The notes under the pieces are model-generated. The model was not told the origin of the DNA and made no database searches. It worked only from the letters and a program-made list of their open reading frames with translations. Positions 9,504 through 36,349 of a stretch of DNA of 64,000 bases are shown here, in pieces. Origin of the DNA: Burkholderiaceae bacterium (GTDB taxonomy: Bacteria; Pseudomonadota; Gammaproteobacteria; Burkholderiales; Burkholderiaceae_C); assembly GCA_023150375.1 (NCBI GenBank), contig JAKLLA010000005.1, forward strand, positions 62,001 to 126,000. The letters are read 5' to 3'. The position numbers and the translations under genes are program-made. How positions within the stretch are numbered: position 1 is the stretch's first letter; the number at the start of each line of letters is the position of its first letter.

Positions 9504-10283
9504 TCAGACCAGGCCCGCGTACGCTGCACCGTCGAGCTGCAGGTTCTGGCCGCTGATGTAGCCGGCCAGATCGCTGCAGAGGAAGGCGCAGGCGGCGCCG
9601 AACTCCTCCGGCCGGCCCATGCGGCCGGCGGGGATGGTGGCGGCGATCTGCGCGCGCGCTTCATCCCGGCTGATGCCCGACGCCTTCATCATGCGCTGTG
9701 CCATGAACTCCTGGCGCGGCGTGTCGATGCGCTCGGGCAGCAGGTTGTTGATCGTCACGTTGTCCGGCGCCGCCTCGCGCGCCAGCGCCCGGCTCAGCGC
9801 GGTCAGCCCGGCACGCGCGGCGGTGGACAGGCCCATCGCGGCATGCGGCGTCTTCACCATCGCCGAGGTGATGTTGACGATGCGGCCCCAACGCCGCGCG
9901 CGCATGCCCGGCAGCACCGCGCGCAGCAGCAGGGCTCCGGTCAGCAGGTTGGCCTCCAGCGCGCCCATCCACGCGTCGTGGTCCCAGTCGGCCAGCTGGC
10001 CGGGCGGCGGGCCGGCGTTGTTGTTGATCAGGATGTCCGGCGCCGGGCAGGCCGCCAGCAGCGCCGCGCGACCTGTCTCGGTGACCAGATCGGCCGCGAC
10101 GCCGTGCACCGCCGCACCGGTGTCGGCCCGCAGGCGTTCGACCGCCGCAGCCAGCTTGTCGGTGTTGCGCCCGTTCAGCCAGACCTCGCAGCCCTCCTGC
10201 GCCAGCGCCAGCGCACAGGCGTAGCCCAGCCCCTGGGATGAGGCGCACACCAGGGCCTTGCGCCCGCGAATGCCGAGGTCCAT
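9504..10283 (-). CDS. Atypical SDR-family oxidoreductase lacking the YxxxK motif
   Basis: A 259-residue SDR-fold protein with cofactor motif CASSQGLGYACALAL and NNNAGPPPG. In the active-site region NITSAMVKTPHAAMG is followed by LSTAARAGL where classical enzymes read YSAAKAG. The catalytic Tyr is therefore Leu and the Lys is Arg, while the Ser is retained. An atypical FabG-like subgroup with this loss is known to me in proteobacteria, often annotated as 3-oxoacyl-ACP reductase. Catalysis by the usual proton relay is unlikely. It is the last gene of the leftward arm of the catabolic island, 9 bases after the next SDR. Confidence 0.85.
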   Translation of the reverse strand: MDLGIRGRKALVCASSQGLGYACALALAQEGCEVWLNGRNTDKLAAAVERLRADTGAAVHGVAADLVTETGRAALLAACPAPDILINNNAGPPPGQLADWDHDAWMGALEANLLTGALLLRAVLPGMRARRWGRIVNITSAMVKTPHAAMGLSTAARAGLTALSRALAREAAPDNVTINNLLPERIDTPRQEFMAQRMMKASGISRDEARAQIAATIPAGRMGRPEEFGAACAFLCSDLAGYISGQNLQLDGAAYAGLV

Positions 10284-10292
10284 CGTGCGTCC

Positions 10293-11039
10293 TCAGAGAA
10301 GATAGCCGCCGCCGTCGCAGAGCATGAACTGGCCGGTGATCAGCTCCGCCTCGTCGCTGGCCAGGAAGGCGATCAGCCCGGCCAGGTGGCGCGGCTCGCC
10401 ACGCTTCCTGATGGCCTGGTTCTGCATCACGCGGTCGAAGGCTTCCTCGGCCGAGTGCTCGCGCGTGCCGTCGGTGGCGATCATGCCCGGCGCCACCGCG
10501 TTGACGGTGATGTTCTCCGGCCCCAGCTCCTTGGCCAGCACGCGGGTGAAGCCCATCACCGCGCCCTTGCTGGCCACGTAGGCCATCTGGCCCGGGTTGG
10601 CCAGGTAGTAGGTGCGCGAGGCGACGTTGATGATGCGCCCGGCGCTGCTCTTCTTCAGTAGCGGATAGAAGGCCTGGCTGACCAGGAAGTAGCCCATGAA
10701 GTTGACCTGCAGGAAGCGGTTCACCTCCTCGCGCTCCAGCTCATGCCAGGGCTTGCGGCCCGACAGGATGCCGGCGTTGTTGACCAGGATGTCGATGCGC
10801 CCGCGCCGCGCCTCCACGGCCTGGGCAGCGGCGCGGATCTGGTCTTCGTCGGTGACGTCGCACAGCGACGCCGCCGCCTCGCCACCGGCTTCGCGGATCA
10901 GCGCGATCGTCTGCGCGGCGTCGTTGCGGTCGAGGATTTCGACGATGGCGCCTTCCTGTGCCAGCTTCAGCGCCGCGCCCTGGCCCATGCCGGAGGCCGC
11001 GCCGCTCACCACCGCGATGCGGCCGTCGAGTCGTCCCAT
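10293..11039 (-). CDS. Classical SDR-family dehydrogenase
   Basis: A 248-residue classical SDR with all canonical motifs. VVSGAASGMGQGAAL binds the cofactor and EILDRND, with an acidic residue after beta-2, suggests NAD(H). NNAGIL, then INVASRTYYLANPGQMAYVA and YVASKGAV (Ser/Tyr/Lys), form the active site. Likely role: oxidation of a hydroxyl intermediate (hydroxyacyl-CoA, diol or carbinol) in the catabolic island. The exact substrate is unknown. Confidence 0.88.
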   Translation of the reverse strand: MGRLDGRIAVVSGAASGMGQGAALKLAQEGAIVEILDRNDAAQTIALIREAGGEAAASLCDVTDEDQIRAAAQAVEARRGRIDILVNNAGILSGRKPWHELEREEVNRFLQVNFMGYFLVSQAFYPLLKKSSAGRIINVASRTYYLANPGQMAYVASKGAVMGFTRVLAKELGPENITVNAVAPGMIATDGTREHSAEEAFDRVMQNQAIRKRGEPRHLAGLIAFLASDEAELITGQFMLCDGGGYLL

Positions 11040-11083
11040 GGTTGCTTCCTTTCGTGTCGAGGTTCAGGCCGCGTGCCGGCCCG

Positions 11084-12433
<1,350 letters not shown>

Positions 12434-12434: not shown

Positions 12435-13247
12435 TCAGCTCCCCTTTGCCTCGTCTTTGGCCTCGTCCTTGGCCACCAGCGGCTTGGCCTTGCCCTCGAC
12501 GAACTCGCGCAGGCGCTGCTCGACCTCGGGCGGGCGGGCCATCGCGGAGTTCAGCTGCTCCACGAACAGGCCGTCGTCGTGCGACATGTCCTGGATGCGC
12601 GGCAGCACGTTGACGATCTTCCAGTTCGTCTCGAGGGTGTTCTGCGCGATGCGATGCGCCAGCTCCCTCGCCTTGGCCAGCGCCTGGCCGGCAGGCACCA
12701 CGTAGCGCACGATGTGCTCCTGCAGGCCCTCGGCGGGGCTGAGCAGGCGTCCGGTGAGCATCATGTCCATCATCACGGTGGTGCCCACGACGCGCTGGAT
12801 GCGCACCGTGCCGCCACCGCCGACGAAGATGCCGCGCTGCCCCTCGGGCAGGCCGAAGAAGGCGGTCTCGTCACAGACCCGCACATGCGCCGCGGTCGCC
12901 AGTTCCAGCCCGCCGCCCACCACCGCGCCGTGCAGCGCGGCGACCACGGGGATCGGCCCGCGCGCGATCTGGTCGAACACCGTGTGCCAGTTGTGGCGGC
13001 GGCGCTTGCGTGACGGCGCGATCTTGCCGGTGGCGCGCGCCAGCGCCTCGGCCAGGTCCAGCCCGGCGCAGAAGTTGGGGCCATGGCCGTGCAGCACGAT
13101 GACGTGGGCGTCCTCGTGCGCGCGCAGCACGGCGCGTTCCAGCTCGGCCACCAGCGCGTCGTGGATGGCGTTGCGCTTGTCCGGTCGGTTCAGGCCGATC
13201 AGGGCGACCGGGCCGTCGAGTTCGTAGGTGATGAAAGTGTCGGTCAT
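12435..13247 (-). CDS. Enoyl-CoA hydratase/isomerase (crotonase), canonical active site
   Basis: A 270-residue crotonase. The oxyanion-hole segment GHGPNFCAGLDL and both catalytic Glu positions are present (GGGLELATAAHVRVCD and FGLPEGQRGIFVGGGG). A hydratase reaction is therefore plausible. The C-terminus carries an acidic/basic Lys-rich tail (GKAKPLVAKDEAKDEAKGS) with a short DEAK repeat. It sits one base from the HCDH gene and 27 bases from the reductase gene. It probably acts on the CoA ester formed in the rightward arm. Confidence 0.92.
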   Translation of the reverse strand: MTDTFITYELDGPVALIGLNRPDKRNAIHDALVAELERAVLRAHEDAHVIVLHGHGPNFCAGLDLAEALARATGKIAPSRKRRRHNWHTVFDQIARGPIPVVAALHGAVVGGGLELATAAHVRVCDETAFFGLPEGQRGIFVGGGGTVRIQRVVGTTVMMDMMLTGRLLSPAEGLQEHIVRYVVPAGQALAKARELAHRIAQNTLETNWKIVNVLPRIQDMSHDDGLFVEQLNSAMARPPEVEQRLREFVEGKAKPLVAKDEAKDEAKGS

Positions 13248-13274: not shown

Positions 13275-14255
13275 TCAAAGATCCAGGACGAGCCTGGCGG
13301 ACCTGGCGCCCGAGCAGCAGACCATCATGCGGGTGTTGGCGGCGCGCTCGGCGGCGCCGAGCACCAGGTCGCGGTGGTCGGGCTCACCCTCGAGCACCCT
13401 GACCTCGCAGGTGCCGCAGACACCTTCGCGGCAGGAATAGAGCACGTCGACGCCCTCGGCGAGCAGGCGGTCGAGCAGCGTCTCGCCGGGCCGCACCTGC
13501 AGGCTGCGGGCGCTGCGCTGCAGCTCGACCTGGTAGCCGCCCTCGGTGGCCGCGGCCTCCTGGGCGGCGAAGTACTCCAGGTGCACCTGCTCGCGCGGCC
13601 AGGCGGCGGTGGCGGCCTCGTAGGCGGCCAGCAGGCCCTTCGGGCCGCAGGCGTACAGGTGGCTGGCCGGTGGCAGGGCCGCGACCAGGCCGGGCAGGTC
13701 CAGCACCCGGCCGCGCTCGGCGTCGAAGTGCAGGTCCAGCGTGCCGTCCCGCCCCGCGGCCTGGGCTGCCTCGGACAGGGCCTGCAGCTCGGCCACGTAG
13801 GCCGCGTGGGCGCGGTCGCGGCAGGCGTAGTGCAGCCGCCAGGGCTGACCGAGCGCTTCCAGCCGGCGGATCATGCCGAGGATCGGCGTGATGCCGATGC
13901 CCCCGGCAATGAAGACCGACAGCGGCGCCGCCTCGTTCAGCGGGAAGTGGTTGCGCGGCGCGCCCACCGTCAGCGTCTGGCCGCAGCGCAGCTGCTCGTG
14001 GATCCAGCGCGAGCCGCCGCGGCTGGCCGCATCGCGGTTCACCGCGATGCACCAGCGCTGCCGCTCGCCCGGCGCATTCAGCAGCGAGTAGCTGCGCACC
14101 AGGCCGTCCGGCAGGTGCAGGTCGATGTGCGCGCCGGCCTCGAAGTCGGGCAGCAGGGTGTTGGGCTGCAGCGGCACCAGCTCGATGCCCAGGATGCCTT
14201 CGGCTTCCCAGGTGAGGGCGCGCACGCGCAGGGTGAGGAGGGTGGGGGTGCTCAT
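13275..14255 (-). CDS. PDR/VanB-family reductase (flavin, NADH and C-terminal 2Fe-2S)
   Basis: A 326-residue electron-transfer component. The flavin-binding barrel carries RSYSLLNAP. The NAD-binding domain has FIAGGIGITPILGMI and YACGPKGLL. The C-terminal plant-type ferredoxin has Cys275, Cys280, Cys283 and Cys313 (CREGVCGTC, then CC). This domain order is that of phthalate dioxygenase reductase and VanB. It would pass electrons from NADH to the neighbouring Rieske oxygenases. Only one reductase accompanies two oxygenases, so it may serve both. It ends 27 bases before the oxygenase stop in the same operon. Confidence 0.93.
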   Translation of the reverse strand: MSTPTLLTLRVRALTWEAEGILGIELVPLQPNTLLPDFEAGAHIDLHLPDGLVRSYSLLNAPGERQRWCIAVNRDAASRGGSRWIHEQLRCGQTLTVGAPRNHFPLNEAAPLSVFIAGGIGITPILGMIRRLEALGQPWRLHYACRDRAHAAYVAELQALSEAAQAAGRDGTLDLHFDAERGRVLDLPGLVAALPPASHLYACGPKGLLAAYEAATAAWPREQVHLEYFAAQEAAATEGGYQVELQRSARSLQVRPGETLLDRLLAEGVDVLYSCREGVCGTCEVRVLEGEPDHRDLVLGAAERAANTRMMVCCSGARSARLVLDL

Positions 14256-14282: not shown

Positions 14283-15578
14283 TCAGAGGTCGATCATCTC
14301 GGCGCGGCTCTGCGCCACGCCGGTGGCCTGTTCGCAGGCGCGCCGCACCGAATCGGGCTGGCCGGCGTGGAAGATGAACTGCGTCAGCAGGCGCCACCAC
14401 TTGGGGTCGCGGCGGTACTCCGCCAGCGGCAGGCCGTGCAGGAAGAAGTCGCGGTGGTCGCTGGGCAGGAACACCCGCTGGTTGCGCTGCGGATCGCGCA
14501 TCACGCCCTTGGGGTCGCGACCGTTGCGCACCGCGTCGATGTCATCGAACAGCTGGCGGCGCAGCATCGCGATGCCGCGGTCGCTGGCGCCCAGCAGCTC
14601 GCGGCTGCGGTCGGTGACGGCGCCCTGGCCGACCCAGCCGACGATGTCCTGGTTGATGACGTGGCTGGTGATCCAGCGCCCGTCGGCCGCGCGGATCGGG
14701 CTGGTCCAGGAAGGGATCTCGGTCTGCACGTAGGGCTCGGCCTCGCGCGGCACGCGGATGAAGCTCCAGGTCACCGACAGCGTGTTCGTGTCGTCCACCG
14801 GCACGCGCCACTCGAAGTGGTCGCCGAGGAAGAAGCCGTTCGGCCACAGGCAGACGCGGCCGATGGTCCACAGCGGGTGCTGCTCGTCGGTGTCCTCGGT
14901 GATGCGCTTGTAGAGGAAGCCGTGCTCGAACGCCTCGAAGGCCAGCTTCAGGTGCCGCGGCGCATAGCCTGCGCCCGAGCCCCTGCCGGCCTCGTCGTTC
15001 AGCCGGCGCGTCCAGTTGGCGTGCATCCACTCGAAGTGCACCGGGTCGATCGAGTTCTCCTGCGTCTGCAGCCAGTTGCAGGGCACCTCGGCGAACACCA
15101 CCTGCACGAAGCCGTTGGCCCAGTGGAAGGGCTCCCAGTCCGGCAGCTCGGGCGCGGGCGCCGGGCCGAGGTAGGCCCACAGCAGGCCGGCTTTGGCGCG
15201 CACCGGGTAGGCCTGCAGCGAGGCCTGCCGGCGCAGCCGGCACTGCGGATCGACGACGTCCTCGTAGGGCTGCTCGGCGCAGCGTCCGTCGGCGGCGTAG
15301 CGCCAGCCGTGGTAGTTGCAGCGGAGGCCCTCGGCCTCGACGAAGCCGTAGGCCAGGTCGGCGTTGCGGTGCCGGCAGCGCCGCTCGACCAGGCCGTACC
15401 GACCGGACAGGTCCTTGAACAGCACCAGGTCCTCGCCCATCAGCCGCACCGGCTTGACGGGGCGGCGTTCCAGCTCGTCGATGCCGGCCACCGGGTGCCA
15501 GTGGCGGCGCAGCACCTCGCCCATCGGCGTGCCGGGGCCGACCTGAGTCAGCGCCTGGTTCTTTTCTGCGCTCAGCAT
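14283..15578 (-). CDS. Rieske non-heme iron oxygenase, alpha subunit (phthalate-oxygenase-like), copy 1
   Basis: A 431-residue oxygenase. The Rieske centre is C68-R-H70 and C87-N-Y-H90 (CxH-x16-CxxH). The mononuclear iron site is D178-x2-H181-x4-H186 (DPVHFEWMH). The N-terminus LTQVGPGTPMGEVLRRHWHPV is typical of the phthalate 4,5-dioxygenase/VanA branch, which needs no beta subunit. Such enzymes hydroxylate aromatic acids or O-demethylate methoxyarenes with the adjacent PDR/VanB reductase. The substrate is unknown. Confidence 0.93.
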   Translation of the reverse strand: MLSAEKNQALTQVGPGTPMGEVLRRHWHPVAGIDELERRPVKPVRLMGEDLVLFKDLSGRYGLVERRCRHRNADLAYGFVEAEGLRCNYHGWRYAADGRCAEQPYEDVVDPQCRLRRQASLQAYPVRAKAGLLWAYLGPAPAPELPDWEPFHWANGFVQVVFAEVPCNWLQTQENSIDPVHFEWMHANWTRRLNDEAGRGSGAGYAPRHLKLAFEAFEHGFLYKRITEDTDEQHPLWTIGRVCLWPNGFFLGDHFEWRVPVDDTNTLSVTWSFIRVPREAEPYVQTEIPSWTSPIRAADGRWITSHVINQDIVGWVGQGAVTDRSRELLGASDRGIAMLRRQLFDDIDAVRNGRDPKGVMRDPQRNQRVFLPSDHRDFFLHGLPLAEYRRDPKWWRLLTQFIFHAGQPDSVRRACEQATGVAQSRAEMIDL

Positions 15579-15606: not shown

Positions 15607-16590
15607 TCACTCGGGCTTGAAGCCCGAGGCCTTGATGATGGGTTCCCAGTGCGCCAGCTCGGCGCGCTGGCGCTGCGCCATCTCGGCGGCCGGGCGGAAG
15701 TCGGGCGTCACCATCAGCTTGCCGACGAGCAGCTCGCGCAGCGCCGGCTGCGCCAGCACCTTCTGCAGCGCGCGCTGCATGCGCTCCAGCTCGGCGGCCG
15801 GGGTCTTCGCCGGGGCCCACATGCCGGTCCAGCCCTCGCCGCTGGTCACCTTGATGCCCTGTTCGGCGAAGGTGGGGATGTCGGGCATCAGCTCCGAGCG
15901 CTTCTCGGTGAAGACGCCGATGACCTTCACCTGCCCGGCGCGGTGGTGCTTGAGCAGGCCGTCCATCAGGCTGATGGCCGCCGGCACATGCCCGCCCACC
16001 AGGTCGGTGACCATCGGCGGGGTGCCCTTGTAGGGCGTCACCGGCAGGTCGATGCCGGCTTCCCGCGCCAGCTGCACGCCCAGGAAGTGGTTCTGCCCGC
16101 CCAGGCCCGGCGTGCCGAAGCTGGCGGCCCTGGGGTTCTTCTTCGCCCAGTCGATGAACTCGCGGGCGTTGCTGGCGCCGGTGGCCTGGCTCACCGCCAT
16201 GCCCAGCGGGTAGGACACCAGCGAGGCCACGGGGGCGAAGTCGCGGAACAGGTTCCACTTCAGCTGCGGGCCGAACACCAGGGTCTGGAAGGTCGGCGTC
16301 GCATTGGGCGCGATCATCCAGGTCAGCCCGTCGGGGGCGGCGGTCATCAGCGCATCGGCGGCAAAGCGCCCGCCGGCGCCGACCTTGTTGTCGATGATCA
16401 CCGGCTGACCGAGTTCGGCGGGCAGCCGGTCGGCGATCGCGCGGGCGATGGCGTCGGTGCCCCCGCCGGGCGGCAGGCCCAGCAGGATGCGGATCGGCTT
16501 GTCGCCGCCCTGGGCGGCTGCCAGGGTGGGAACGGCCAAGGCCGCGGTGGCCGCGGCGGCGCGGGTCAGGAGGTGGCGGCGATGCAGCAT
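15607..16590 (-). CDS. Bug/TctC-family periplasmic solute-binding protein, copy 1
   Basis: A 327-residue protein with a twin-Arg-like/Sec signal (MLHRRHLLTRAAAATAALAV, cleavage likely after AAA in LAAAQ). Family motifs are IRILLGLPPGGGTDAIAR, IDNKVGAGGRFAADAL, SFGTPGLGGQNHF and PYKGTPPMVTDLVGGHV. Bug proteins bind carboxylates for tripartite TctAB transport, but no tctA/tctB is in the island. It lies between the two Rieske genes, so its ligand is probably the pathway's aromatic acid. Confidence 0.92.
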   Translation of the reverse strand: MLHRRHLLTRAAAATAALAVPTLAAAQGGDKPIRILLGLPPGGGTDAIARAIADRLPAELGQPVIIDNKVGAGGRFAADALMTAAPDGLTWMIAPNATPTFQTLVFGPQLKWNLFRDFAPVASLVSYPLGMAVSQATGASNAREFIDWAKKNPRAASFGTPGLGGQNHFLGVQLAREAGIDLPVTPYKGTPPMVTDLVGGHVPAAISLMDGLLKHHRAGQVKVIGVFTEKRSELMPDIPTFAEQGIKVTSGEGWTGMWAPAKTPAAELERMQRALQKVLAQPALRELLVGKLMVTPDFRPAAEMAQRQRAELAHWEPIIKASGFKPE

Positions 16591-20349: not shown

Positions 20350-20363
20350 TGTTTGGTATGCCA
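20350..20363. promoter_or_regulatory. Candidate GntR operator (right), TGGTATGCCA
   Basis: TGGTATGCCA (20354-20363) is a palindrome with one mismatch. It overlaps TGTTTGGTAT (20350-20359), an inverted copy of the left site's ATACCAAACA. It covers the first possible ATG (20358) of the acyl-CoA ligase, so a bound regulator would block that arm's expression. Confidence 0.45.
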
Positions 20364-27332: not shown

Positions 27333-27724
27333 CCCGCAAGATTCCCAAACCCATGGTCCAGGCCGAGACCGCCGCCTACTGGCAGGCCGCCGACGAGGGG
27401 CGCCTGCTGGTCAAGCGCTGCACGGCCTGCGGCGAGTTCCACCACTACCCGCGCGACATCTGCCCGCACTGCCTGAGCGACGCCACCGAGTGGGTCGAGG
27501 CGGCCGGCACCGGCACGGTCTACTCCTTCAGCACGATGGGCCAGGGCGAGGCCGCCTACACGCTGGCCTACGTGACGCTGGACGAAGGGCCGACGATGCT
27601 GACCAACCTGGTCGGTGCCGAGGCGGCCGTGCCTGCGCCCGCCTATGCGATCGGCCAGAAGGTGCGCGTGGTCTTCGCGCCCAGCGAGGGCGGTCCGGCG
27701 GTGCCGATGTTCACCCCCGCCTGA
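27329..27724 (+). CDS. Zn-ribbon OB-fold (DUF35) partner of the thiolase
   Basis: A 131-residue protein. The N-terminal helix KPMVQAETAAYWQAADEGRL is followed by a zinc ribbon CTACGEFHHYPRDICPHC (CxxC-x10-CxxC) and an OB-fold (AGTGTVYSFSTM). DUF35 proteins bind acyl-CoA and form complexes with SCP2-type thiolases; in steroid side-chain breakdown such a complex carries out retro-aldol cleavage. The placement next to the thiolase supports such a complex. The start is ATG 27329, with GAGGGG supplied by repeat R1. Confidence 0.92.
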   Translation: MTRKIPKPMVQAETAAYWQAADEGRLLVKRCTACGEFHHYPRDICPHCLSDATEWVEAAGTGTVYSFSTMGQGEAAYTLAYVTLDEGPTMLTNLVGAEAAVPAPAYAIGQKVRVVFAPSEGGPAVPMFTPA

Positions 27725-28974: not shown

Positions 28975-30081
28975 ATGGCCCGACTCGTTGCCGCCTTCGG
29001 CGCCTCGCACAGCATCATGCTGGTCTCGCAGCGCGAGGACTGGATGCACGGCTTCCGTGCCATCGACCCGAAAAACCCCTTTCTCTTCGACAAGCGCGGT
29101 GAGAAGACGGACTATGCGGCGCTGCTGGCCGCCACGCCGCCCGGCGCCGCCGAGGCGCTGGCCTCACCCGAGGTGATGAGTGCGCGCTACGACCAGGCCG
29201 AGGCCGCGATGGACACACTGCGCGAGCGCATCCACGCCGCGCGGCTGGACGTGCTGCTGATCGTCGGCGACGACCAGACGGAGCTGTTTCGCACCACCCA
29301 CAACCCCTCGATCGCGATCTACTGGGGCGAGACGATCCGCAACACGAAGCGCGAGCCGGCCTCGCCATCGGACGCCTGGGTCAAGAGCGCGCGCATGTGG
29401 CGCCACGAGCCCGAGGCGGACCGCGACTACCCCGTCAAGAGCGATCTGGCGCAGTGGCTGATCCGCCAGCTCTGCGACCGCGACTTCGACATCGCCGCGC
29501 TCGACGGGCTGGAGCCCGGCCAGTTCGAGGGCCACGCCTTCCAGTTCATCCACCGCCGCCTGCTTCAAGGGGGCCCCTGGGCGTCGGGTACGACGCCCGC
29601 CCCCCGAGGGGGCAGCGGGCCGATCTTGGGGCGGCCCGGCGATCGACCCGAAGGGGGCAACGTCCCGGCCGACCCCATGACGCCGGTGATCCCGGTGATC
29701 CTGAACACCTTCGACCCACCCAACCAGCCCACGCCGCGACGCTGCGTTCAACTCGGTGCGGCGCTGCGCGATCTGATCGCCGCCTGGCCCGAGGACCTGC
29801 GCGTGGGCGTGATCGCCTCGGGTGGCCTGAGCCACTTCGTGGTGGACGAGGCGCTCGACCAGCAGGTGCTCGACGCGATCCGCCGCAAGGACGGCGCGGC
29901 GCTGGCCGCGCTGGACCCCAAGCGCCTGCAGGCCGGCAGCAGCGAGATCCGCAACTGGATCGTCGTCGGCGAGCTGGCCCGCGACCTTGACCTGGACCAG
30001 GTCGAGTACATCCCCGCCTACCGCAGCCCGGCCCTGACCGGCACCGGGCTGGCGTTTGCCAGTTGGAAAACCCTGGAGTAG
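28975..30081 (+). CDS. LigB-family class III extradiol dioxygenase with an in-frame repeat insertion
   Basis: A 368-residue protein related to LigB/3-O-methylgallate dioxygenases. The first iron His is in AFGASHSIMLV; the catalytic His in IASGGLSHFVVD; the iron Glu in AGSSEIRNW. The position of LigB His61 reads Gln (IVGDDQTELF), which I believe is a feature of the DesZ-like branch. Between FIHRRLLQ and MTPVIPVILNTF lies about 35 residues of Gly/Pro-rich sequence (GGPWASGTTPAPRGGSG and following) encoded by repeat R3. This is probably a surface-loop insertion. Expected reaction: meta-type cleavage of a catechol/gallate-like acid. GGAAAGGA precedes ATG 28975. Confidence 0.85.
   Translation: MARLVAAFGASHSIMLVSQREDWMHGFRAIDPKNPFLFDKRGEKTDYAALLAATPPGAAEALASPEVMSARYDQAEAAMDTLRERIHAARLDVLLIVGDDQTELFRTTHNPSIAIYWGETIRNTKREPASPSDAWVKSARMWRHEPEADRDYPVKSDLAQWLIRQLCDRDFDIAALDGLEPGQFEGHAFQFIHRRLLQGGPWASGTTPAPRGGSGPILGRPGDRPEGGNVPADPMTPVIPVILNTFDPPNQPTPRRCVQLGAALRDLIAAWPEDLRVGVIASGGLSHFVVDEALDQQVLDAIRRKDGAALAALDPKRLQAGSSEIRNWIVVGELARDLDLDQVEYIPAYRSPALTGTGLAFASWKTLE
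29572..29646 (-). repeat. Island repeat copy R3, inverted and inside the dioxygenase ORF
   Basis: Read on the minus strand, this segment begins CGATCGCCGGGCCGCCCCAA and continues through GGCCCG to CCCCCTCGGGGGG. This is clearly related to R1/R2, with some indels. It keeps the reading frame of the plus-strand dioxygenase gene and encodes most of a non-conserved 35-residue loop. No stop codon is introduced. Confidence 0.7.
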
Positions 30082-30087: not shown

Positions 30088-30858
30088 ATGTCGATCCAGA
30101 ACGAAGAGCGGTCCGAGCGCCGGGCCGCTCCCAAGCCGGACCGCATCCCCTCGGGGGATCGGCCGACGTACCCGGCGGTCGAGGGGCTCGTGAAGCGCCT
30201 GCGCCGGCTCGACGCCTGCGCGGTCTCCGATGCCCTCGACAAACTCGGCTTGGCCGGCGCCGTCACCGGCCTGCCGCTGCGCAGCGCCGGCCCGGGCGGC
30301 GCCAGCCGCATCGCCGGCCGGGCCGTGACGATGAAGGTCGGCCCCGGTACGCCGCCGCCCGGCCCGCCGAAGCACCTGGGCTGCACCGCGATCGAGCTGG
30401 CCGGTGCGGACGACCTGATCGTCGTCGAGCAACGCAGCGGTGTCGAAGCCGGCTGCTGGGGCGGCCTGCTGACGCTGGGCGCCAAGGTGCGCGGCATCGC
30501 CGGCGTGGTGGCCGACGGGCCGCTGCGCGACGTGGACGAGGCCATCGCCTACGAGTTCCCGATCTACGCCCGCTGCCTGACCTCGCGCACCGCGCGCGGC
30601 CGGGTGGTGGAGCTGGGCACGCAGGTGCCGGTGGTGATCGGCGACGCGCAGGCCGGCGGCCAGGCCACCGTACACCCCGGCGACTACCTGCTGGCCGACC
30701 GCAGCGCGGTGATCGTGATCGCCGCCGCGGACATCGAGCGCGTGCTGGACGCCGCCGAGCAGATCGTCGCCAAGGAGGCGGCGATGGCCAAGGCGATTCT
30801 TTCCGGCACCCCCATCGGTCAGGTGATGGGTGGCAACTACGAACACATGTTGAAGTAG
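30088..30858 (+). CDS. RraA/CHA-aldolase-family protein 1, with repeat-encoded N-terminus
   Basis: A 256-residue protein from ATG 30088. The family core starts near residue 35 (KRLRRLDACAVSDALDKLG). The conserved Arg-Asp of the aldolase site is in GAKVRGIAGVVADGPLRDVD. The C-terminal GDYLLADRSAVIVIAAADIE is also typical. Residues 10-34 come from repeat R2. GTG 30190 would give a 222-residue protein of normal family length, preceded by the repeat's GAGGGG; ATG 30088 has TGGAG nine bases upstream. Likely a class II pyruvate-type aldolase or oxaloacetate decarboxylase acting on ring-cleavage products. Confidence 0.87.
   Translation: MSIQNEERSERRAAPKPDRIPSGDRPTYPAVEGLVKRLRRLDACAVSDALDKLGLAGAVTGLPLRSAGPGGASRIAGRAVTMKVGPGTPPPGPPKHLGCTAIELAGADDLIVVEQRSGVEAGCWGGLLTLGAKVRGIAGVVADGPLRDVDEAIAYEFPIYARCLTSRTARGRVVELGTQVPVVIGDAQAGGQATVHPGDYLLADRSAVIVIAAADIERVLDAAEQIVAKEAAMAKAILSGTPIGQVMGGNYEHMLK
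30113..30188 (+). repeat. Island repeat copy R2 (76 bases)
   Basis: It aligns gap-free with R1 (offset 2863 bases), about 87 percent identical by hand count. Mismatches cluster in the last third, before the shared closing CGAGGGGCT. In both copies the plus-strand frame reads ERRAAPKP-x-RIPSG. The closing GAGGGG is three bases before GTG 30190. Confidence 0.8.
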
Positions 30859-30945
30859 GCCCACCCCCGTAGCGGCTCACGCCGCTCCCCCTCGAGGGGG
30901 AGACACCAGCAGCCCGGCCGAGCCGGATCTGCGGTGTCCGCTGGA
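30859..30945 (+). repeat. Second-type GC-rich palindromic repeat between the aldolase-family genes
   Basis: The spacer between two aldolase-family genes contains GCTCCCCCTCGAGGGGGAG, a near-perfect palindrome, then ACACCAGCAGCCCGGCCGAG and a TCCGCTGG end. The layout resembles Burkholderiales REP-like elements. No gene or T-tract lies in it. It may act as an mRNA stabiliser within the operon. Confidence 0.55.
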
Positions 30946-30971
30946 TGAAAACCGACGAAAAGGAACTGGAG

Positions 30972-31631
30972 ATGACTGAACAGGACCCCAACGTGGCGCG
31001 CGCCGCGAAACTCGACACCGCCACGCTCTCCGACGCGCTGGACAAGCACGGCATCGCCGGTCAGTGCTACCGCATCCAGGGCCGCGACCCGGCCTTCCGC
31101 ATGACCGGGCGTGCCTGGACGCTGCTCTACGGCCCCGGCGGCAAGCCCTGCGGCACGGTGGGCGACTACATCGACGACGTGCCACCCGGCAGCATCGTGG
31201 TGCTGGACAACGGCGGTCGCGACAACGCCACCGTCTGGGGCGACATCCTCACCGAGATCGCGCACCGCCGCGGCATCGCCGGCACGCTGATCGACGGTGT
31301 CTGCCGCGACACCGCGCTGTGCCGCCAGCTCGGTTACCCCATCTTCAGCAAGGCGCACTGGATGCGCACCGGCAAGGACCGCGTGCAGGTGGAGGCCACC
31401 TGCGTGCCGGTGAACATCGGCGACGCCCGCGTGGCGCCGGGCGACATCGTGCGCGGCGACGCCGACGGCGTGGTCGTGATCCCCAAGGAGCACGAGGCCG
31501 CGGTGCTCGATACCGCCGAGGCCATCGAGGTGGCAGAAGAGGCCATCCGCAAGGCGGTGCGCGGCGGCATGCGGCTGGACGAGGCGCGCAAGCAGTTCAA
31601 GTACCACCAGCTGCAGACCCGCCAGGAGTGA
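30972..31631 (+). CDS. RraA/CHA-aldolase-family protein 2
   Basis: A 219-residue protein starting MTEQDPNVARAAKLDTATLS. The aldolase-family metal/substrate motif is HRRGIAGTLIDGVCRDTALC (conserved Arg-Asp), and GDIVRGDADGVVVIPKEHEA is the family C-terminal strand. AAAAGGAACT precedes ATG 30972; an ATG at 30945 adds nine residues but lies at the repeat boundary. It diverges from both neighbours of the same family, so the three probably have different roles, for example aldolase, decarboxylase or tautomerase-like. Confidence 0.88.
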   Translation: MTEQDPNVARAAKLDTATLSDALDKHGIAGQCYRIQGRDPAFRMTGRAWTLLYGPGGKPCGTVGDYIDDVPPGSIVVLDNGGRDNATVWGDILTEIAHRRGIAGTLIDGVCRDTALCRQLGYPIFSKAHWMRTGKDRVQVEATCVPVNIGDARVAPGDIVRGDADGVVVIPKEHEAAVLDTAEAIEVAEEAIRKAVRGGMRLDEARKQFKYHQLQTRQE

Positions 31632-31633: not shown

Positions 31634-32299
31634 ATGAGCGCCCGATTCGACTGGTCCACCACCACCCGGGCCGATGCGCCGCGGGTGAGCGGCGACCTCG
31701 TGGCCGCCGCACGTGGCCTGCCCACCGCCACCCTGCACGAGGCTGGCGGCAAGATCGGCGCGCTGCCTTCGGCGCTGAGGCCCATCGCGCCGGGCATGCG
31801 GGTCTGCGGCCCGGCGCTGACGGTGCATTCGCCCGGCGGCGACAACCTCTGGCTGCACCGCGCGCTGGACGTGGCGCGGCCCGGCGACGTGATGGTGGTC
31901 TACGCCAGCGGCGTGTACGAACACGGCTACTGGGGCGAGATCATGGCCACGATGGCGCAGGCCCGTGGCGTGGCCGGCCTGGTGATCGACGGCGGCGTGC
32001 GCGACTCGACGCTGCTGGCCGAGATGGGCTTCCCGGTGTTCGCCCGCGGCCTGTGCATCCGCGGCACCGGCAAGGACTTCGGCGCCACCGGCTGGATCAA
32101 CCACCCGATCCGCCTGGGCGAGGTCACGGTGGACGGCGGCGACCTGATCGTCGGCGATGCGGATGGCGTCGTCGCCATCCCCCGTGCGCGGGCGGCCGAA
32201 GTGATCGAGAAGTCGATTCAGCGCGAGGCCGACGAGGCGGCGATCCTGGCCCGGCTGCGCGCGGGCGAATCGACCTTGGACGTGTATGGCTGGCGCTGA
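31634..32299 (+). CDS. 4-carboxy-4-hydroxy-2-oxoadipate aldolase-like protein (LigK/GalC-like)
   Basis: The 221-residue third member of the tandem. It matches LigK best as I recall that sequence: LPTATLHEAGGKIGALPSAL, the GGDNLWLHRAL segment, ARGVAGLVIDGGVRDS (Arg-Asp site) and the C-terminal ESTLDVYGWR. LigK splits 4-carboxy-4-hydroxy-2-oxoadipate into pyruvate and oxaloacetate, the step after LigJ. It lies 2 bases after family member 2 and overlaps the crotonase start by 14 bases. Confidence 0.88.
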   Translation: MSARFDWSTTTRADAPRVSGDLVAAARGLPTATLHEAGGKIGALPSALRPIAPGMRVCGPALTVHSPGGDNLWLHRALDVARPGDVMVVYASGVYEHGYWGEIMATMAQARGVAGLVIDGGVRDSTLLAEMGFPVFARGLCIRGTGKDFGATGWINHPIRLGEVTVDGGDLIVGDADGVVAIPRARAAEVIEKSIQREADEAAILARLRAGESTLDVYGWR

Positions 32300-33092
32300 C
32301 TCCGACCTCACCGCCGACTCCTCGGCCGGCCTGCCGTCGCTCGCCATCGACGGCCGCATCGCCACGATCACGCTGCGTCGCCCGCAGGTGGCCAACCTGC
32401 TGGAGCTGGAGGACCTGGCGGCACTGGATGAGCACCTCGCCACGGTCAACGCCCGCCAGGAGGTGCGGGTGCTGCGCCTGCAGGCCGAGGGCCGGCACTT
32501 CTGCAGCGGCTTCAACATCGGCCGGGTGCGGGGCGCGGATGCGGCCGCCGCCGGCACGCGCTTCGAGGCGCTGTCCGAGGCCATCGAGGCCGCCCGCCCG
32601 GTCACGGTGGCCGTGCTGCAGGGCGGCGTCTACGGCGGCGCCACCGACCTGGCGCTGGCCTGTGACTTCCGCCTCGGTACCCCGGCCAGCGAGTGGCGGG
32701 TGCCCGCGGCTCGCCTGGGGCTGCACTACTACCGCGGCGGGCTGGCGCGCTACGTCAGCCGCCTCGGGCTGCAGACCACGCGGCGGGTGATGCTGGCGGC
32801 CGAGACCTTCGACGCCGCGGCGATGCGGGGCGCCGGCATGCTCGACCGGATCGTGCCGTCCGCCGAGCTGGCCCATGAAGTGGAGGCCTTCTGCGCCCAG
32901 CTGGCCGGCATGGCGCCCTTGGCCCTGCTGGGCATGAAGCGCAGCCTGAACCGCCTCGCCGACGGCCCCCTGGATGCGGCCGCCGAGGCCGACATCGCCG
33001 CCTCCATCGCCCGGGCCGCCGCCTCCGAGGACCTCCAGGAGGGTGCGGCCGCCTGGGCCGCCAAACGCGCGCCGGTGTTCCAGGGGCGTTGA
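32286..33092 (+). CDS. Divergent crotonase-family protein without the canonical Glu pair
   Basis: A 268-residue crotonase fold with the oxyanion-hole segment AEGRHFCSGFNIGRV and GGVYGGATDLALACDFRLG. At the two positions that hold catalytic Glu in enoyl-CoA hydratase the sequence has Asp (GGATDLA) and Ala (VPAARLGLHYYRGG). Simple hydration is therefore doubtful; crotonase relatives also act as hydrolases, decarboxylases, isomerases and C-C lyases. It overlaps the LigK-like gene by 14 bases, so it is in the same operon. Confidence 0.87.
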   Translation: MAGADSDLTADSSAGLPSLAIDGRIATITLRRPQVANLLELEDLAALDEHLATVNARQEVRVLRLQAEGRHFCSGFNIGRVRGADAAAAGTRFEALSEAIEAARPVTVAVLQGGVYGGATDLALACDFRLGTPASEWRVPAARLGLHYYRGGLARYVSRLGLQTTRRVMLAAETFDAAAMRGAGMLDRIVPSAELAHEVEAFCAQLAGMAPLALLGMKRSLNRLADGPLDAAAEADIAASIARAAASEDLQEGAAAWAAKRAPVFQGR

Positions 33093-33106: not shown

Positions 33107-34783
33107 ATGACCGCATCGACCTCCAGTGCCGCCGCTTGCAGCTGGGATGCCGAAGCCGACTTCGTCATCGTCGGCGCCGGCACCGCCGGTTGCGTGCTGG
33201 CCAACCGGCTGAGCGCCGACCCGGCGAACCGTGTCGCCCTGATCGAGGCGGGCGGCCCCGACCGCCACCCCTACGTGCGCATGCCGATGGGCTTCCTGAA
33301 GGCCCTGCAGAACCCGGCGCTGACCTGGCAGTTCCAGAGCGAGCCCGAGCCGGCGATGAAGGGCCGGCGCATCCCCATCCCGCGCGGGCGCATCTGGGGC
33401 GGCTCCTCGTCGATCAACGGCATGTTCCACATCCGCGGCCACCGGCGGGACTTCGACGACTGGGCCGCCGCCGGCTGCACCGGCTGGAGCTATGCCGAGG
33501 TGCTGCCCTACTTCCGCCGCAGCGAGACCAGCTGGCGCGGCGACGGCCCCTACCACGGCGGCAGCGGTCCGCTGCAGGTCCACCGCATCGACACCCGCCG
33601 CCTGCTGGCCGAGCCGCTGCGCGAGGCGGCCGCGCGCGCCGGCCACCGTGTCAATGACGACTACGACGGCGAGCACCACGACGGCATCGCCCCTGGCGAG
33701 GTGGCCATCGACCGGCGCGGGCGCCGCCACAGCAGCGCGCGCGCCTACCTGCACCCGGCGCTGCAGCGGCCGAACCTGCAGCCCTTCAGCCACGCCCAGG
33801 TGCAGCGCGTGGTCGTCGAAGGCGGCCGGGCCGTGGGTGTGGAGTTTCTGCAGGGCGGAAAGCGCCGCCGGCTGCGCGCGGCGCGCGAGGTGATCCTCTG
33901 CGGCGGCGCCTATGGCTCGCCCCAGCTGCTGATGCTCTCGGGCATCGGGCCGGGGGCCGACCTGCAGGCGCTGGGCATCGAGGTGGTGAAGCACCTGCCC
34001 GGCGTGGGCGCCAACCTGATCGAGCACCCGCGCATGCCGCTGCAGTTCCGCGCGCGGGGGCCGGTGACCTTCCTGAGCCAGCTGCGCTTCGACCGGGCGG
34101 TGATGAACGTGCTGCGCTGGGCCTTCGCGGGCTCCGGGCCGTTCGCGACGCAGATCTGCTCGGGCACCGTGCTGCTGAAGAGCCAGGCCCAGCTGGACCG
34201 CCCGGACATCCAGCTGCTGTGCAACCCGGTGCGCATCGATGCGCGGATGTGGTTCCCGGGCGTGGTGAACGAGCAGGAGCACTGCTTCTACATCACCGTG
34301 TGCCAGCTCTACGCCAAGAGCCGCGGGCGCGTCAGCCTGCGCTCGGCCGACCCCGCGGTCGCACCTCGCATCGCGCTGAACCTCTTCACCCACCCGGACG
34401 ACCTCGTCAGCATGCGCGAGGGCCTGCGGGCCGCGCGGGCCATCTACCGGCAGATGCCGCAGGCCGCGCTGATCGACCGCGAGACGATCCCCGGCGCGGA
34501 GCTGGAGAGCGACGCCCAGCTGGACGCCGCCATCGCCCAGCTCGGCGGCATCACCCACCACCCGGTGGGCACCTGCGCGATGGGCACCGGGTCGCAGGCG
34601 GTGGTCGACCCCCAGCTGCGCGTGCACGGCGTGGCGGGACTGCGGGTGGTGGACGCCTCGGTGATGCCCTCCATCGTCGGCGGCAACACCAATGCCGCCA
34701 CCCTGATGATCGGCGAGAAGGCCGCGGACCTCATCCTCGGCCGCAGCCTCCCGCCGGCCGCCCTGCCTTCCACTCCCCTTTGA
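33107..34783 (+). CDS. GMC-family FAD oxidoreductase (choline/alcohol dehydrogenase type)
   Basis: A 558-residue flavoenzyme. FVIVGAGTAGCVLANRLS is the FAD Rossmann motif. GRIWGGSSSINGMFHIRGH and GAYGSPQLLMLSGIGPG are the two GMC signatures. Catalytic His is in THHPVGTCAMG, with the partner Asn in VGGNTNAATLMIG. The family oxidises primary alcohols, including aryl alcohols, to aldehydes; the next gene is an aldehyde dehydrogenase, so the two may turn an alcohol into an acid. ATG 33107 is used; an in-frame TTG at 33089 is less likely. Confidence 0.93.
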   Translation: MTASTSSAAACSWDAEADFVIVGAGTAGCVLANRLSADPANRVALIEAGGPDRHPYVRMPMGFLKALQNPALTWQFQSEPEPAMKGRRIPIPRGRIWGGSSSINGMFHIRGHRRDFDDWAAAGCTGWSYAEVLPYFRRSETSWRGDGPYHGGSGPLQVHRIDTRRLLAEPLREAAARAGHRVNDDYDGEHHDGIAPGEVAIDRRGRRHSSARAYLHPALQRPNLQPFSHAQVQRVVVEGGRAVGVEFLQGGKRRRLRAAREVILCGGAYGSPQLLMLSGIGPGADLQALGIEVVKHLPGVGANLIEHPRMPLQFRARGPVTFLSQLRFDRAVMNVLRWAFAGSGPFATQICSGTVLLKSQAQLDRPDIQLLCNPVRIDARMWFPGVVNEQEHCFYITVCQLYAKSRGRVSLRSADPAVAPRIALNLFTHPDDLVSMREGLRAARAIYRQMPQAALIDRETIPGAELESDAQLDAAIAQLGGITHHPVGTCAMGTGSQAVVDPQLRVHGVAGLRVVDASVMPSIVGGNTNAATLMIGEKAADLILGRSLPPAALPSTPL

Positions 34784-34858
34784 AAAGGGGGCGGGGCGAT
34801 CTTTCCCTCGCTGCCGAACACCCGATTCCCTCACCCCCCTTTTGCCAGAGGGGGCGAA
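34770..34858. repeat. Paired C-tract/G-tract palindromes between GMC and ALDH genes
   Basis: Two imperfect palindromes, ACTCCCCTTTGAAAAGGGGG and CACCCCCCTTTTGCCAGAGG with GGG after it, lie 30-40 bases apart in the 90-base spacer. They resemble widespread CCCCTTT/AAAGGGG intergenic elements of Burkholderiales. The ALDH ribosome binding site CCAGGAG follows. Confidence 0.5.
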
Positions 34859-34873
34859 TGCCAGGAGCTGCCG

Positions 34874-36349
34874 ATGACGATGCCTGATCTGCTCAACCGC
34901 CCGCTGCGCTGCCTGATCGACGGCCAGTGGCGCGACGCTGCCCGTGGCGCCACGCTGCCGGTCACCAACCCGAGCACTGGCGAGGTGTTCGCCCAGGCGG
35001 CCGCGGGCGAGGCGGCCGACATCGATGCGGCGGTGGCCGCCGCGCGCCGCGCCTTCGAGTCCGGGCCCTGGTCGAGGATGCCGCCCGCCGGCCGCCAGCG
35101 CCTGCTGTGGCGGCTGGCCGAGCTGATCGACGCCCATGCCGACGAACTGGCGCTGCTGGAGGTGCTCAACACCGGCAAGCCATTGAAGATCGCGCGCATG
35201 TTCGACATCGGCCTGGCCGCGGAATGCCTGCGCTACCACGCCGGCTGGGCGACCAAGCTGGAGGGTGCGACGCGCGACGTCTCGCTGCCCGGGAACTGGC
35301 ATGCCTATACGCTGCGCGAGCCGGTGGGCGTGGCCGGCCTGATCGTGCCCTGGAACGTGCCGCTGCCCATGGCGGTGGGCAAGATCGCCCCGGCCCTGGC
35401 AGCAGGCTGCACCGTGGTGCTCAAGCCCGCAGAGCTGACGCCACTGACCGCCGTGCGGCTGGGCGAGCTGATCGTCGAGGCCGGCTTCCCGCCCGGCGTG
35501 GTCAACATCGTCAGCGGCCTGGGCAGCACTGCCGGGCAGGCGCTGGTCGACCACCCGGGGGTGGACAAGATCTCCTTCACCGGCTCCACCGCGGTGGGCC
35601 AGCGCATCCTGGCCTCGGCGGCGGGCAACCTCAAGCGCCTGTCGCTGGAGCTGGGTGGCAAGAGCCCGGTCTTCATCTTTGCCGACGCCGACCTGGAGCG
35701 CGCCACCGACGCTGCCGCGCGCGGCATCTTCGCCAACAGCGGCCAGGTCTGCGCCGCGGGTTCGCGCCTGTTCGTGCAGCGATCGGTGGCCGACCGGGTG
35801 TTCGAGGGGATCGCCGAGCGCGCCCGCCGCCTGCGCGTGGCGCCCGGGCTGGAACCCGACGCCGAGATGGGCCCGCTGATCTCGGCGCGCCAGCGCGAGC
35901 GCGTGCTGGGCTACATCGACAGCGGCCGCGCGCAGGGCGCCGAGGTGCTGGCCGGCGGTGAGGCGCTGGACGGCCCGGGCTACTTCGTCCAGCCCACCGT
36001 GATGGTGAACACCCGGCCGGACATGACGATGGTGCGCGAGGAGATCTTCGGCCCGGTGCTGTCCACCTTCGTCTTCGACGACGAGGAGTCGGTCGAGCAG
36101 CTCGCCGCGCGCGGCAACGACAGCGCCTACGGCCTGTCGGCCTCGATCTGGACCCGCGACCTGGGCCGAGCCCACCGCCTGGTGCGCAGGATCCGCAGCG
36201 GCGTGGTGCGCGTCAACGCCGCGGTGGCACCGGACTTCGCGATGCCCTTCGGCGGCGTCAAGCTCTCCGGCTGGGGCCGCGAGAACGGGCGCGAGGGCGT
36301 GGAGAGCTACACCGAGCTGAAATCGGTGGCGATGTATCTGGGCGGCTGA
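34874..36349 (+). CDS. NAD(P)-dependent aldehyde dehydrogenase
   Basis: A 491-residue ALDH. Cofactor binding is by PWNVPLPMAVGKIAPALAAG and FTGSTAVGQRIL. The general base Glu is in LSLELGGKSPVF. The nucleophile Cys is in NSGQVCAAGSRLFVQ. The C-terminal PFGGVKLSGWGRENGREGVE is typical. It probably oxidises the aldehyde made by the GMC enzyme or released by side-chain cleavage. AGGAG precedes ATG 34874. It is the last gene of the rightward arm; the 46 bases to the next, convergent gene contain two GGCGCC palindromes but no T-tract. Confidence 0.95.
   Translation: MTMPDLLNRPLRCLIDGQWRDAARGATLPVTNPSTGEVFAQAAAGEAADIDAAVAAARRAFESGPWSRMPPAGRQRLLWRLAELIDAHADELALLEVLNTGKPLKIARMFDIGLAAECLRYHAGWATKLEGATRDVSLPGNWHAYTLREPVGVAGLIVPWNVPLPMAVGKIAPALAAGCTVVLKPAELTPLTAVRLGELIVEAGFPPGVVNIVSGLGSTAGQALVDHPGVDKISFTGSTAVGQRILASAAGNLKRLSLELGGKSPVFIFADADLERATDAAARGIFANSGQVCAAGSRLFVQRSVADRVFEGIAERARRLRVAPGLEPDAEMGPLISARQRERVLGYIDSGRAQGAEVLAGGEALDGPGYFVQPTVMVNTRPDMTMVREEIFGPVLSTFVFDDEESVEQLAARGNDSAYGLSASIWTRDLGRAHRLVRRIRSGVVRVNAAVAPDFAMPFGGVKLSGWGRENGREGVESYTELKSVAMYLGG

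What the first reader, a model, noticed from the sequence alone, without database searches (positions are those of the whole stretch)
9504..36349. A 27-kb divergent catabolic island joining CoA-dependent side-chain chemistry to gallate-type ring cleavage
Seen: a GntR regulator divides two arms of about 24 genes encoding CoA activation, two acyl-CoA dehydrogenases, hydratase, HCDH, thiolase/OB-fold, CoA-transferase, two Rieske oxygenases, one VanB-like reductase, a LigB-type dioxygenase, LigJ- and LigK-like proteins, RidA, GMC oxidoreductase and ALDH. Known: LigJ and LigK are consecutive steps in the 4-oxalomesaconate route; VanB-type reductases serve Rieske O-demethylases. Inference: the island degrades an aromatic compound with an acyl side chain and probably methoxyl or carboxyl groups. 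I know of no described pathway with exactly this set.
Basis: partly seen in the sequence, partly recalled or inferred. Interest (0 to 1): 0.75.

Follow-up and report, generated by a model that had tools for sequence, protein, structure and literature searches.

The report
Two-arm aromatic-acid catabolic island
A conserved 25-gene bacterial island appears to trim a side chain from a plant-type aromatic acid through CoA chemistry and then open its ring with relatives of the enzymes that a lignin-degrading Sphingobium uses on a two-ring lignin fragment, rather than with gallate enzymes as first proposed.

Summary
The island is real: 25 genes at 9504-36349, two arms split by a GntR/FCD regulator. 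Of 25 named genomes tested that carry the right arm, 25 encode the left-arm pair AH2 and Rieske 1 beside it (by coordinates). An operator-like palindrome lies before both arms in 15 of 17 intervals scanned, so the unit looks co-regulated.

The ring half is not gallate-type on this evidence. Rieske 2, the dioxygenase, the amidohydrolase and two of three RraA-like proteins match, in one Sphingobium SYK-6 locus, LigXa (57%), LigZ (35%), LigY (43%) and the two genes between ligZ and ligY (56%, 75%). The 'LigJ-like' protein shares 17 LigY-only and 5 LigJ-only columns. No gallate-route tautomerase is among the 25 genes.

Best reading: CoA-dependent side-chain shortening, Rieske oxidation, LigZ-type cleavage, LigY-type C-C hydrolysis, then RraA proteins to pyruvate. 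The substrate is unproven. Against DDVA itself, a LigW homologue was not found in the window's genome or in 17 of 25 island genomes. RidA is unexplained. New variant of a known kind. Structure jobs did not finish.

The parts
19350..20087 (-). GntR/FCD regulator between the arms (start inferred; ORF open to 20186)
   Evidence: Pfam FCD 1.9e-23, GntR 3e-18; start chosen
20159..20168 (.). operator-like palindrome copy near the regulator, 1 mismatch to TGGYATRCCA
20354..20363 (.). operator-like palindrome TGGTATGCCA before the right arm; it overlaps the first ATG candidate, so the synthetase probably starts at 20376
18967..19353 (-). RidA-family protein
   Evidence: PF01042 3.7e-14 on the longer ORF; TIGR00004 45 bits, below its cut-off of 106
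17898..18905 (-). amidohydrolase_2 (AH2), LigY-like (43% to LigY, 38% to LigJ), own clade
16606..17856 (-). Rieske oxygenase 1 (core), LigXa_C domain
   Evidence: PF19301 3.3e-31, PF00355 5.4e-12; orthologue near the right arm in 25 of 25 genomes
15607..16590 (-). TctC-type solute-binding protein
   Evidence: PF03401 1.7e-52
14283..15578 (-). Rieske oxygenase 2, 57% to the SYK-6 protein taken as LigXa; not in every island
   Evidence: tree
13275..14255 (-). VanB-like reductase (Fer2, NAD_binding_1)
12435..13247 (-). enoyl-CoA hydratase family, 57% to the one in the SYK-6 DDVA locus
11084..12433 (-). 3-hydroxyacyl-CoA dehydrogenase
10293..11039 (-). SDR 2; no separate place seen in the eight related stretches
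9504..10283 (-). SDR 1, end of the left arm; seen in five of the eight related stretches (two of the others do not reach it)
20376..22598 (+). NDP-forming acyl-CoA synthetase, 42% to the one in the SYK-6 DDVA locus
22595..23797 (+). acyl-CoA dehydrogenase, large (PimC-like, below cut-off); nearest solved chains Tcur3483 and 4x28
23812..24957 (+). acyl-CoA dehydrogenase, small (PimD-like, below cut-off)
24999..25982 (+). TctC-type solute-binding protein
25996..27219 (+). thiolase / lipid-transfer-type protein; Cys of ECGGSAP kept in the 9 island sequences aligned
27329..27724 (+). OB-fold partner (zf-ChsH2, OB_ChsH2_C)
27768..28958 (+). class III CoA-transferase; nearest solved chain succinate-HMG CoA-transferase
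28975..30081 (+). LigZ-family class III extradiol dioxygenase, 35% to the SYK-6 protein taken as LigZ
29566..29676 (+). in-frame repeat-derived insert (37 codons) inside the dioxygenase gene
30088..30858 (+). RraA-like 1, 56% to the gene after ligZ; most orthologues align only from about 30190
30945..31631 (+). RraA-like 2, 75% to the gene before ligY; other genome matches are 39% or less
31634..32299 (+). RraA-like 3, passes one CHA/HMG aldolase cut-off
   Evidence: NF006731 197 bits against 179; TIGR02798 178 against 304.5
32286..33092 (+). enoyl-CoA hydratase/isomerase family
33107..34783 (+). GMC oxidoreductase, in 7 of 40 related right-arm loci
34874..36349 (+). aldehyde dehydrogenase, in 8 of 40 related right-arm loci

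Best explanation
A co-regulated island for a carboxylated, probably methoxylated, plant-type aromatic with a C3-type side chain. Inferred order: TctC proteins and an unlinked transporter bring in the acid; in this genome GMC and ALDH can first oxidise a side-chain alcohol. The NDP-forming synthetase or the CoA-transferase activates the side-chain acid; the paired acyl-CoA dehydrogenases, hydratase, HCDH/SDR and the thiolase/OB pair remove a two- or three-carbon unit, leaving a ring carboxylate. A Rieske oxygenase with the VanB-like reductase demethylates or hydroxylates to a 3,4-dihydroxy-5-R-benzoate. The LigZ-type enzyme cleaves next to R; the LigY-type amidohydrolase hydrolyses the C-C bond, releasing R-COOH and 4-carboxy-2-hydroxypenta-2,4-dienoate (CHPD). 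RraA-like 1 and 2 are proposed to take CHPD to HMG and RraA-like 3 to split HMG to two pyruvates. Shown: gene content, homology, conservation of the unit. Inferred: every reaction, their order, R, and the substrate.
For: One SYK-6 locus, the known DDVA cluster, holds homologues of Rieske 2, LigB, AH2, RraA 1 and RraA 2, and also of the synthetase, a hydratase, the thiolase and the OB protein. The solved LigY chain 5vn5 is 100% identical to its AH2; LigZ and LigXa are named there from gene order and the table ligZ SLG_07720, ligY SLG_07750, ligXa SLG_07770. AH2 shares 17 columns with all 12 LigY-type rows and none of the 3 LigJ-type rows, against 5 the other way. In the LigB family H12, E103, H287 and E324 are invariant over 34 rows, LigZ included, and the window's DDQ.E is NDQ.E in LigZ. 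RraA 2 is the most conserved part (75% to SYK-6; 70-88% in 40 loci, a set chosen by RraA 2), as expected of a step that does not depend on R. No RraA gene was found at the genome's second LigZ/LigY module on C14 and RraA 2 has no other close copy in the genome. Two Paraburkholderia LigY-type modules lie beside thiolase, OB and HCDH (L114, L127).
Against: With the SYK-6 gene taken as LigW (from its place, SLG_07850) the window's genome shows only its three AH2 proteins, and 17 of 25 island genomes show nothing at E 1e-25, so R-COOH is probably not 5-carboxyvanillate handled as in SYK-6. AH2 forms its own clade, sister to neither LigY nor LigJ with certainty. RidA goes with this AH2 clade (17 of 19 distinct loci; 0 of 18 LigY-type loci) and the scheme gives it no role. 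Rieske 2, the LigXa-like part, was seen in 3 of the 8 family islands (G070, G246; G245) and not in the left arms of G167, G210, G197 and G110 as covered. LigZ identity is only 35%. The thiolase cysteine is not kept in the SYK-6 relatives. Both predicted-structure jobs were unfinished.
Confidence: 0.55

Rival explanations
1. Gallate/3-O-methylgallate route: the side chain of a sinapate- or caffeate-type acid is removed, Rieske enzymes demethylate, LigB makes 4-oxalomesaconate, the amidohydrolase hydrates it and an RraA protein splits CHA to pyruvate and oxaloacetate.
For: RraA 3 passes one CHA-aldolase cut-off; two Rieske oxygenases would suit two methoxyl groups (inference); AH2 shares 5 columns with LigJ-type rows only; syringate O-demethylation by a VanAB pair in an operon under a GntR repressor is published (PMC12314914, passages).
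Against: AH2 nearer to LigY than LigJ (43% against 38%, 17 against 5 columns); dioxygenase of the LigZ family, 37 bits against 412 for gallate dioxygenase; no OMA tautomerase (LigU/GalD) among the 25 genes (rest of the genome not searched for it); RraA 1 and 2 shared with the DDVA locus; a separate LigJ-type gene at C20.
Confidence: 0.15
2. The CoA arm works after, not before, ring cleavage: R is an aliphatic or alicyclic group, and the LigY-type hydrolase releases an acid that the CoA arm activates and breaks down.
For: The acyl-CoA dehydrogenases are nearest to PimC and PimD (below cut-off) and to Tcur3483 and 4x28; the CoA-transferase is nearest to succinate-HMG CoA-transferase; LigW was not found in most island genomes (17 of 25).
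Against: The ring half occurs without the CoA arm within the fetched locus in 11 of 80 loci; the SYK-6 DDVA locus carries CoA genes although its LigY product is aromatic; an aliphatic R does not explain the LigXa-like oxygenase (inference).
Confidence: 0.2
3. Two unrelated pathways share one regulator and location, the CoA arm for a fatty or terpenoid acid and the ring genes for an aromatic.
For: Ring-only modules exist; thiolases of 57-81% identity occur in genomes without the close LigB.
Against: Genes of the two functions are mixed within both arms, and the unit is kept in 25 of 25 genomes tested, of Comamonadaceae, Sphaerotilaceae, Burkholderiaceae, Halomonadaceae and Acidocella.
Confidence: 0.1

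Closest known systems
DDVA (5,5'-dehydrodivanillate) catabolic locus of Sphingobium sp. SYK-6 (ligXa, ligZ, ligY, ddvT, ddvK)
   Same: Homologues of LigXa (57%), LigZ (35%), LigY (43%), the two RraA genes between ligZ and ligY (56%, 75%), and of the synthetase (42%), hydratase (57%), thiolase (35%) and OB protein (28%) of the same locus
   Different: Adds a core second Rieske enzyme, RidA, RraA 3, paired acyl-CoA dehydrogenases, HCDH, CoA-transferase and TctC proteins; own AH2 clade; LigW not found in 17 of 25 island genomes; SYK-6 uses TonB and MFS transport
Gallate / protocatechuate 4,5-cleavage lower route (LigJ or GalB, LigK or GalC)
   Same: RraA 3 passes one CHA/HMG aldolase cut-off; AH2 and LigJ are in one superfamily
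   Different: AH2 outside the LigJ clade; no tautomerase among the 25 genes; dioxygenase of another branch
Steroid side-chain and benzylsuccinate-type CoA modules (paired acyl-CoA dehydrogenases; Ltp2/ChsH2 or BbsAB)
   Same: Nearest solved chains for the large dehydrogenase are Tcur3483 and 4x28, and for the thiolase 4u4e and a nonspecific lipid-transfer protein, with BbsB further down; OB partner of ChsH2 type. That Tcur3483 and 4x28 are steroid side-chain enzymes is recalled
   Different: Scores below the equivalog cut-offs for PimC, PimD, BbsA and BbsB; linked to ring cleavage of another kind

Membership tests
DDVA-type (LigXa/LigZ/LigY) ring module | LigXa-type Rieske oxygenase | tested here: met
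   Rieske 2 57% to the SYK-6 protein over 430 residues, same clade of 19 rows at SH-aLRT 99
DDVA-type (LigXa/LigZ/LigY) ring module | LigZ-type dioxygenase with its conserved residues | tested here: met
   35% over 382 aligned positions; H12, E103, H287, E324 invariant in 34 rows
DDVA-type (LigXa/LigZ/LigY) ring module | amidohydrolase inside the LigY clade | tested here: not met
   own clade of 18 rows at 100/100, beside a LigY clade at 90/99
DDVA-type (LigXa/LigZ/LigY) ring module | LigW to decarboxylate 5-carboxyvanillate | tested here: not met
   not found in the window's genome; 8 of 25 island genomes have a match at 30-45% identity, 17 none at E 1e-25
DDVA-type (LigXa/LigZ/LigY) ring module | activity on DDVA | not testable with these tools
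   needs an assay
Gallate-type route | amidohydrolase in the LigJ clade | tested here: not met
Gallate-type route | OMA tautomerase (LigU or GalD) in the unit | tested here: not met
   none named among the Pfam and NCBIfam hits of the 25 genes; rest of the genome not searched
Gallate-type route | LigK/GalC-type aldolase | tested here: met
   RraA 3, 197 bits against cut-off 179 for NF006731, but below TIGR02798
Gallate-type route | gallate dioxygenase (PRK13367) score over its cut-off | tested here: not met
   37 bits against 412
Thiolase versus aldolase in the CoA arm | catalytic cysteine | tested here: inconclusive
   Cys kept in the 9 island sequences aligned, Ser in three relatives, Ile in three SYK-6-type ones; not checked against a solved active site

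The most novel reading that the evidence does not exclude
The island and the SYK-6 DDVA locus are two forms of one unrecognised system for side-chain-bearing dimers of the 5-5 or a related type (for example diferulates or dihydro forms): CoA genes trim the side chains that DDVA lacks, and the conserved RraA 1/RraA 2 pair is the unassigned step from CHPD to HMG in all such pathways.
Probability: 0.25. Interest if true: 0.75.

Novelty: new variant of a known kind. Interest (0 to 1): 0.5.

Why it matters
If right, a widespread pathway, not found described in the searches made, links phenylpropanoid-type side-chain metabolism to LigZ/LigY-type ring cleavage in Burkholderiales, Halomonas and Acidocella, and it suggests why CoA genes sit in the classic DDVA locus. 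It also makes an enzyme question testable: whether the RraA 1/RraA 2 pair turns CHPD into HMG.

Tried and rejected
Riboflavin (lumichrome) catabolism was looked at as a possible parallel (PMC12746152, passages including the abstract): its ring and lower-pathway enzymes differ. N-heterocycle or aminophenol cleavage, suggested by RidA, was considered; I saw no other gene for it, and RidA stays unexplained. A search for LigW as support for a DDVA product went against that reading. Searches on diferulate breakdown, on SYK-6 gene tags and on CHPD hydratase gave nothing usable (listings; PMC10825196, passages, repeats the known DDVA products). Rfam reached no threshold in the window. Structure prediction for AH2 and LigB was started and had not finished at the last polls, so no fold search was made. 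In the operator scan G070 was dropped because the pairing took a wrong copy and gave a 15-kb interval. The scanned motif, TGGYATNCMA with one mismatch, was chosen by eye from the same sequences, so the comparison with resampled sequences (74 matches with both strands counted, mean 6.1 and largest 13 of 200, 17 intervals) is partly circular; both copies were seen in 15 of 17 intervals, one in G110, and the window's second copy only. In the window alone TGGYATRCCA with one mismatch is no commoner than chance (6 against 5.3). Some G-numbered genomes and L-numbered loci are the same records by equal contig lengths (for example G070 and L142, G246 and L075), so counts must not be added. In the class counts thiolase, CoA-transferase and LigB define the island class, so their 40 of 40 is by construction.
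Full report
What is there. Twenty-five genes fill 9504-36349. The left arm, minus strand from the regulator outwards, is RidA, amidohydrolase_2 (AH2), Rieske 1, TctC, Rieske 2, VanB-like reductase, enoyl-CoA hydratase, HCDH and two SDRs. The right arm, plus strand, is NDP-forming acyl-CoA synthetase, large and small acyl-CoA dehydrogenase, TctC, thiolase, OB-fold protein, CoA-transferase III, LigB-type dioxygenase, three RraA-like proteins, a second hydratase-family protein, GMC oxidoreductase and aldehyde dehydrogenase.

It is a conserved unit. A search of 250 genomes of the family, the window's own included, found the close dioxygenase (72% identity or more over its first part) in 8 other genomes, and the close thiolase (87% or more) in the same 8. 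The three other genomes of the window's own genus in that sample had no match to either at the thresholds used. Of those 8, six show both arms (one of them cut in the left arm by the stretch taken), G110 is reduced, without AH2, the RraA genes, the two acyl-CoA dehydrogenases, the CoA-transferase and the reductase on its 18.6-kb contig, and G138 shows only part of the right arm at a contig start. A scan of named genomes with RraA 2 kept the best 80 of 574 relatives. Of the 80, 40 are island right arms, 11 ring-only modules with this AH2 type (within the fetched locus), 12 LigY-type modules (5 of them with CoA genes) and 17 other or truncated. Of the 40, 34 hold all ten right-arm genes tested; OB and the three RraA genes are in 40 of 40 (thiolase, CoA-transferase and LigB too, by construction), GMC in 7, ALDH in 8, and Rieske 2 in 3 within the flanks of at most 10 kb, which mostly do not reach the left arm. 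I gave 25 of the 40 to two further searches: in 25 of 25, Rieske 1 and AH2 lie near the right arm by coordinates. They include Cupriavidus, Paraburkholderia, Variovorax, Caldimonas, Azohydromonas, Polaromonas, Limnohabitans, Halomonas and Acidocella, and a strain named Burkholderia sp. lig30.

Regulation. Of seventeen regulator-to-synthetase intervals, 15 hold an imperfect palindrome near the regulator and again before the synthetase (limits stated under tried and rejected). In the window the two copies are at 20159-20168, one mismatch, and 20354-20363, exact.

What the ring half is. The scan returned the DDVA locus of Sphingobium SYK-6 (L122). The solved LigY chain is 100% identical to its AH2, and a review table gives ligZ, ligY and ligXa as SLG_07720, 07750 and 07770 (PMC12997858: outline, passages and sections 5 and 7 seen), which fits the order found; LigZ, LigXa, LigW and LigJ of SYK-6 are named here from that table and their places. 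Identities from the window to that locus: RraA 2 75%, Rieske 2 57%, hydratase 57%, RraA 1 56%, AH2 43%, synthetase 42%, LigB 35%, thiolase 35%, OB 28%. PMC6874591 (passages) gives the DDVA pathway as LigXa, LigZ and LigY to 5-carboxyvanillate and CHPD; its legend, as seen, names no enzyme for CHPD. In the AH2 tree the island type forms a clade of 18 rows (100/100), apart from the LigJ clade (100/100, stem 1.02) and the LigY clade (90/99). Among 130 columns invariant in the 16 island and ring-only rows, 17 are shared with all 12 LigY-type rows and none of the 3 LigJ-type rows, including R181, Y184, F188 and E192; 5 go the other way. So AH2 is on the LigY side in sequence but is not a LigY orthologue.

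The RraA genes. All three keep the Arg-Asp pair in the rows aligned; RraA 1 has Gly where RraA 2 has Asp and the window's RraA 3 has Glu in the WG(G/D/E) position. Arg-123 of the Pseudomonas aldolase matters for its activity (PMC5065237, passages); that the window's Arg corresponds to it is my reading of the motif, not a structural alignment. RraA 1 and RraA 2, but no close RraA 3 (36% at best, on the RraA 2 gene), are in the SYK-6 DDVA locus; a second SYK-6 module (L155) has all three at 68, 73 and 62%. Because RraA 2 is the best conserved part while LigB and AH2 diverge, I infer that it acts after the variable group R has left, on CHPD or a tautomer. This is inference.

The CoA half. The large dehydrogenase is nearest, among solved chains, to Tcur3483 and 4x28, the thiolase to 4u4e and a nonspecific lipid-transfer protein, the transferase to succinate-HMG CoA-transferase. 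That the former are heteromeric steroid side-chain enzymes is recalled. The Cys of ECGGSAP is kept in the 9 island sequences aligned but is Ser or Ile in six others, so thiolase or retro-aldolase action stays open. The SYK-6 DDVA locus has a synthetase, hydratase, thiolase, OB protein and a BD-FAE-family esterase (PF20434, 2.4e-30) ahead of ligZ; BD-FAE is a broad family label and no proof of a feruloyl ester.

Against a plain DDVA pathway. The window's genome shows three proteins of this amidohydrolase kind: this one, one 67% identical to LigY at C14, and one 64% identical to the SYK-6 LigJ at C20; the SYK-6 LigW as query finds only these. In 31 named genomes LigW is found in 3 of 3 sphingomonads (best 59-100%), in 8 of 25 island carriers at 30-45%, and in 1 of 3 other LigY-type carriers at 31%. 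RidA occurs with the island AH2 type in 17 of 19 distinct loci (the two misses lie at contig ends), with two further plasmid modules, and in 0 of 18 LigY-type loci (short loci limit what a miss means). I cannot explain RidA.

Verdict. The unit works like a LigXa/LigZ/LigY module joined to a side-chain module, but two defining features of the DDVA pathway were tested and not met, so it is filed as a new variant.

Noticed in passing
29566-29676; 30114-30187; 27246-27293: A G+C-rich dispersed repeat sits in frame inside the LigB gene, at the start of the RraA 1 ORF and between the thiolase and OB genes; the LigB copy matches 8 other places in the genome at 77-85% identity.
   Followed up: partly
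G000:C14:107772-121966 and 141486-150236: The same genome carries a second LigZ/LigY-type module (AH2 67% to LigY) with no RraA gene found there, and a further Rieske-HCDH-OB-thiolase group about 24 kb from that AH2.
   Followed up: partly
L156 (SYK-6), 2886-8305: Synthetase, hydratase, thiolase, OB and BD-FAE-family esterase genes lie ahead of ligZ in the classic DDVA locus; a search for six SYK-6 locus tags listed one paper, through ligZ only.
   Followed up: partly
L155 (SYK-6), 6523-17470: A second SYK-6 module: GntR/FCD, acyl-CoA dehydrogenase, LigY-type AH2 (61%), LigB, three RraA genes and a Rieske oxygenase.
   Followed up: partly
18967-19353 and related loci: RidA tracks the island AH2 type (17 of 19 distinct loci) and not the LigY type (0 of 18); its role is unexplained.
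   Followed up: partly
5375-9367: phaC-type, thiolase and SDR genes flank the left end.
   Followed up: no
44001-48000: Strong AT skew (-0.31), with A about half as common as T over 4 kb.
   Followed up: no
36921-38564: ORF of 547 codons with coding-type composition but no Pfam match.
   Followed up: no
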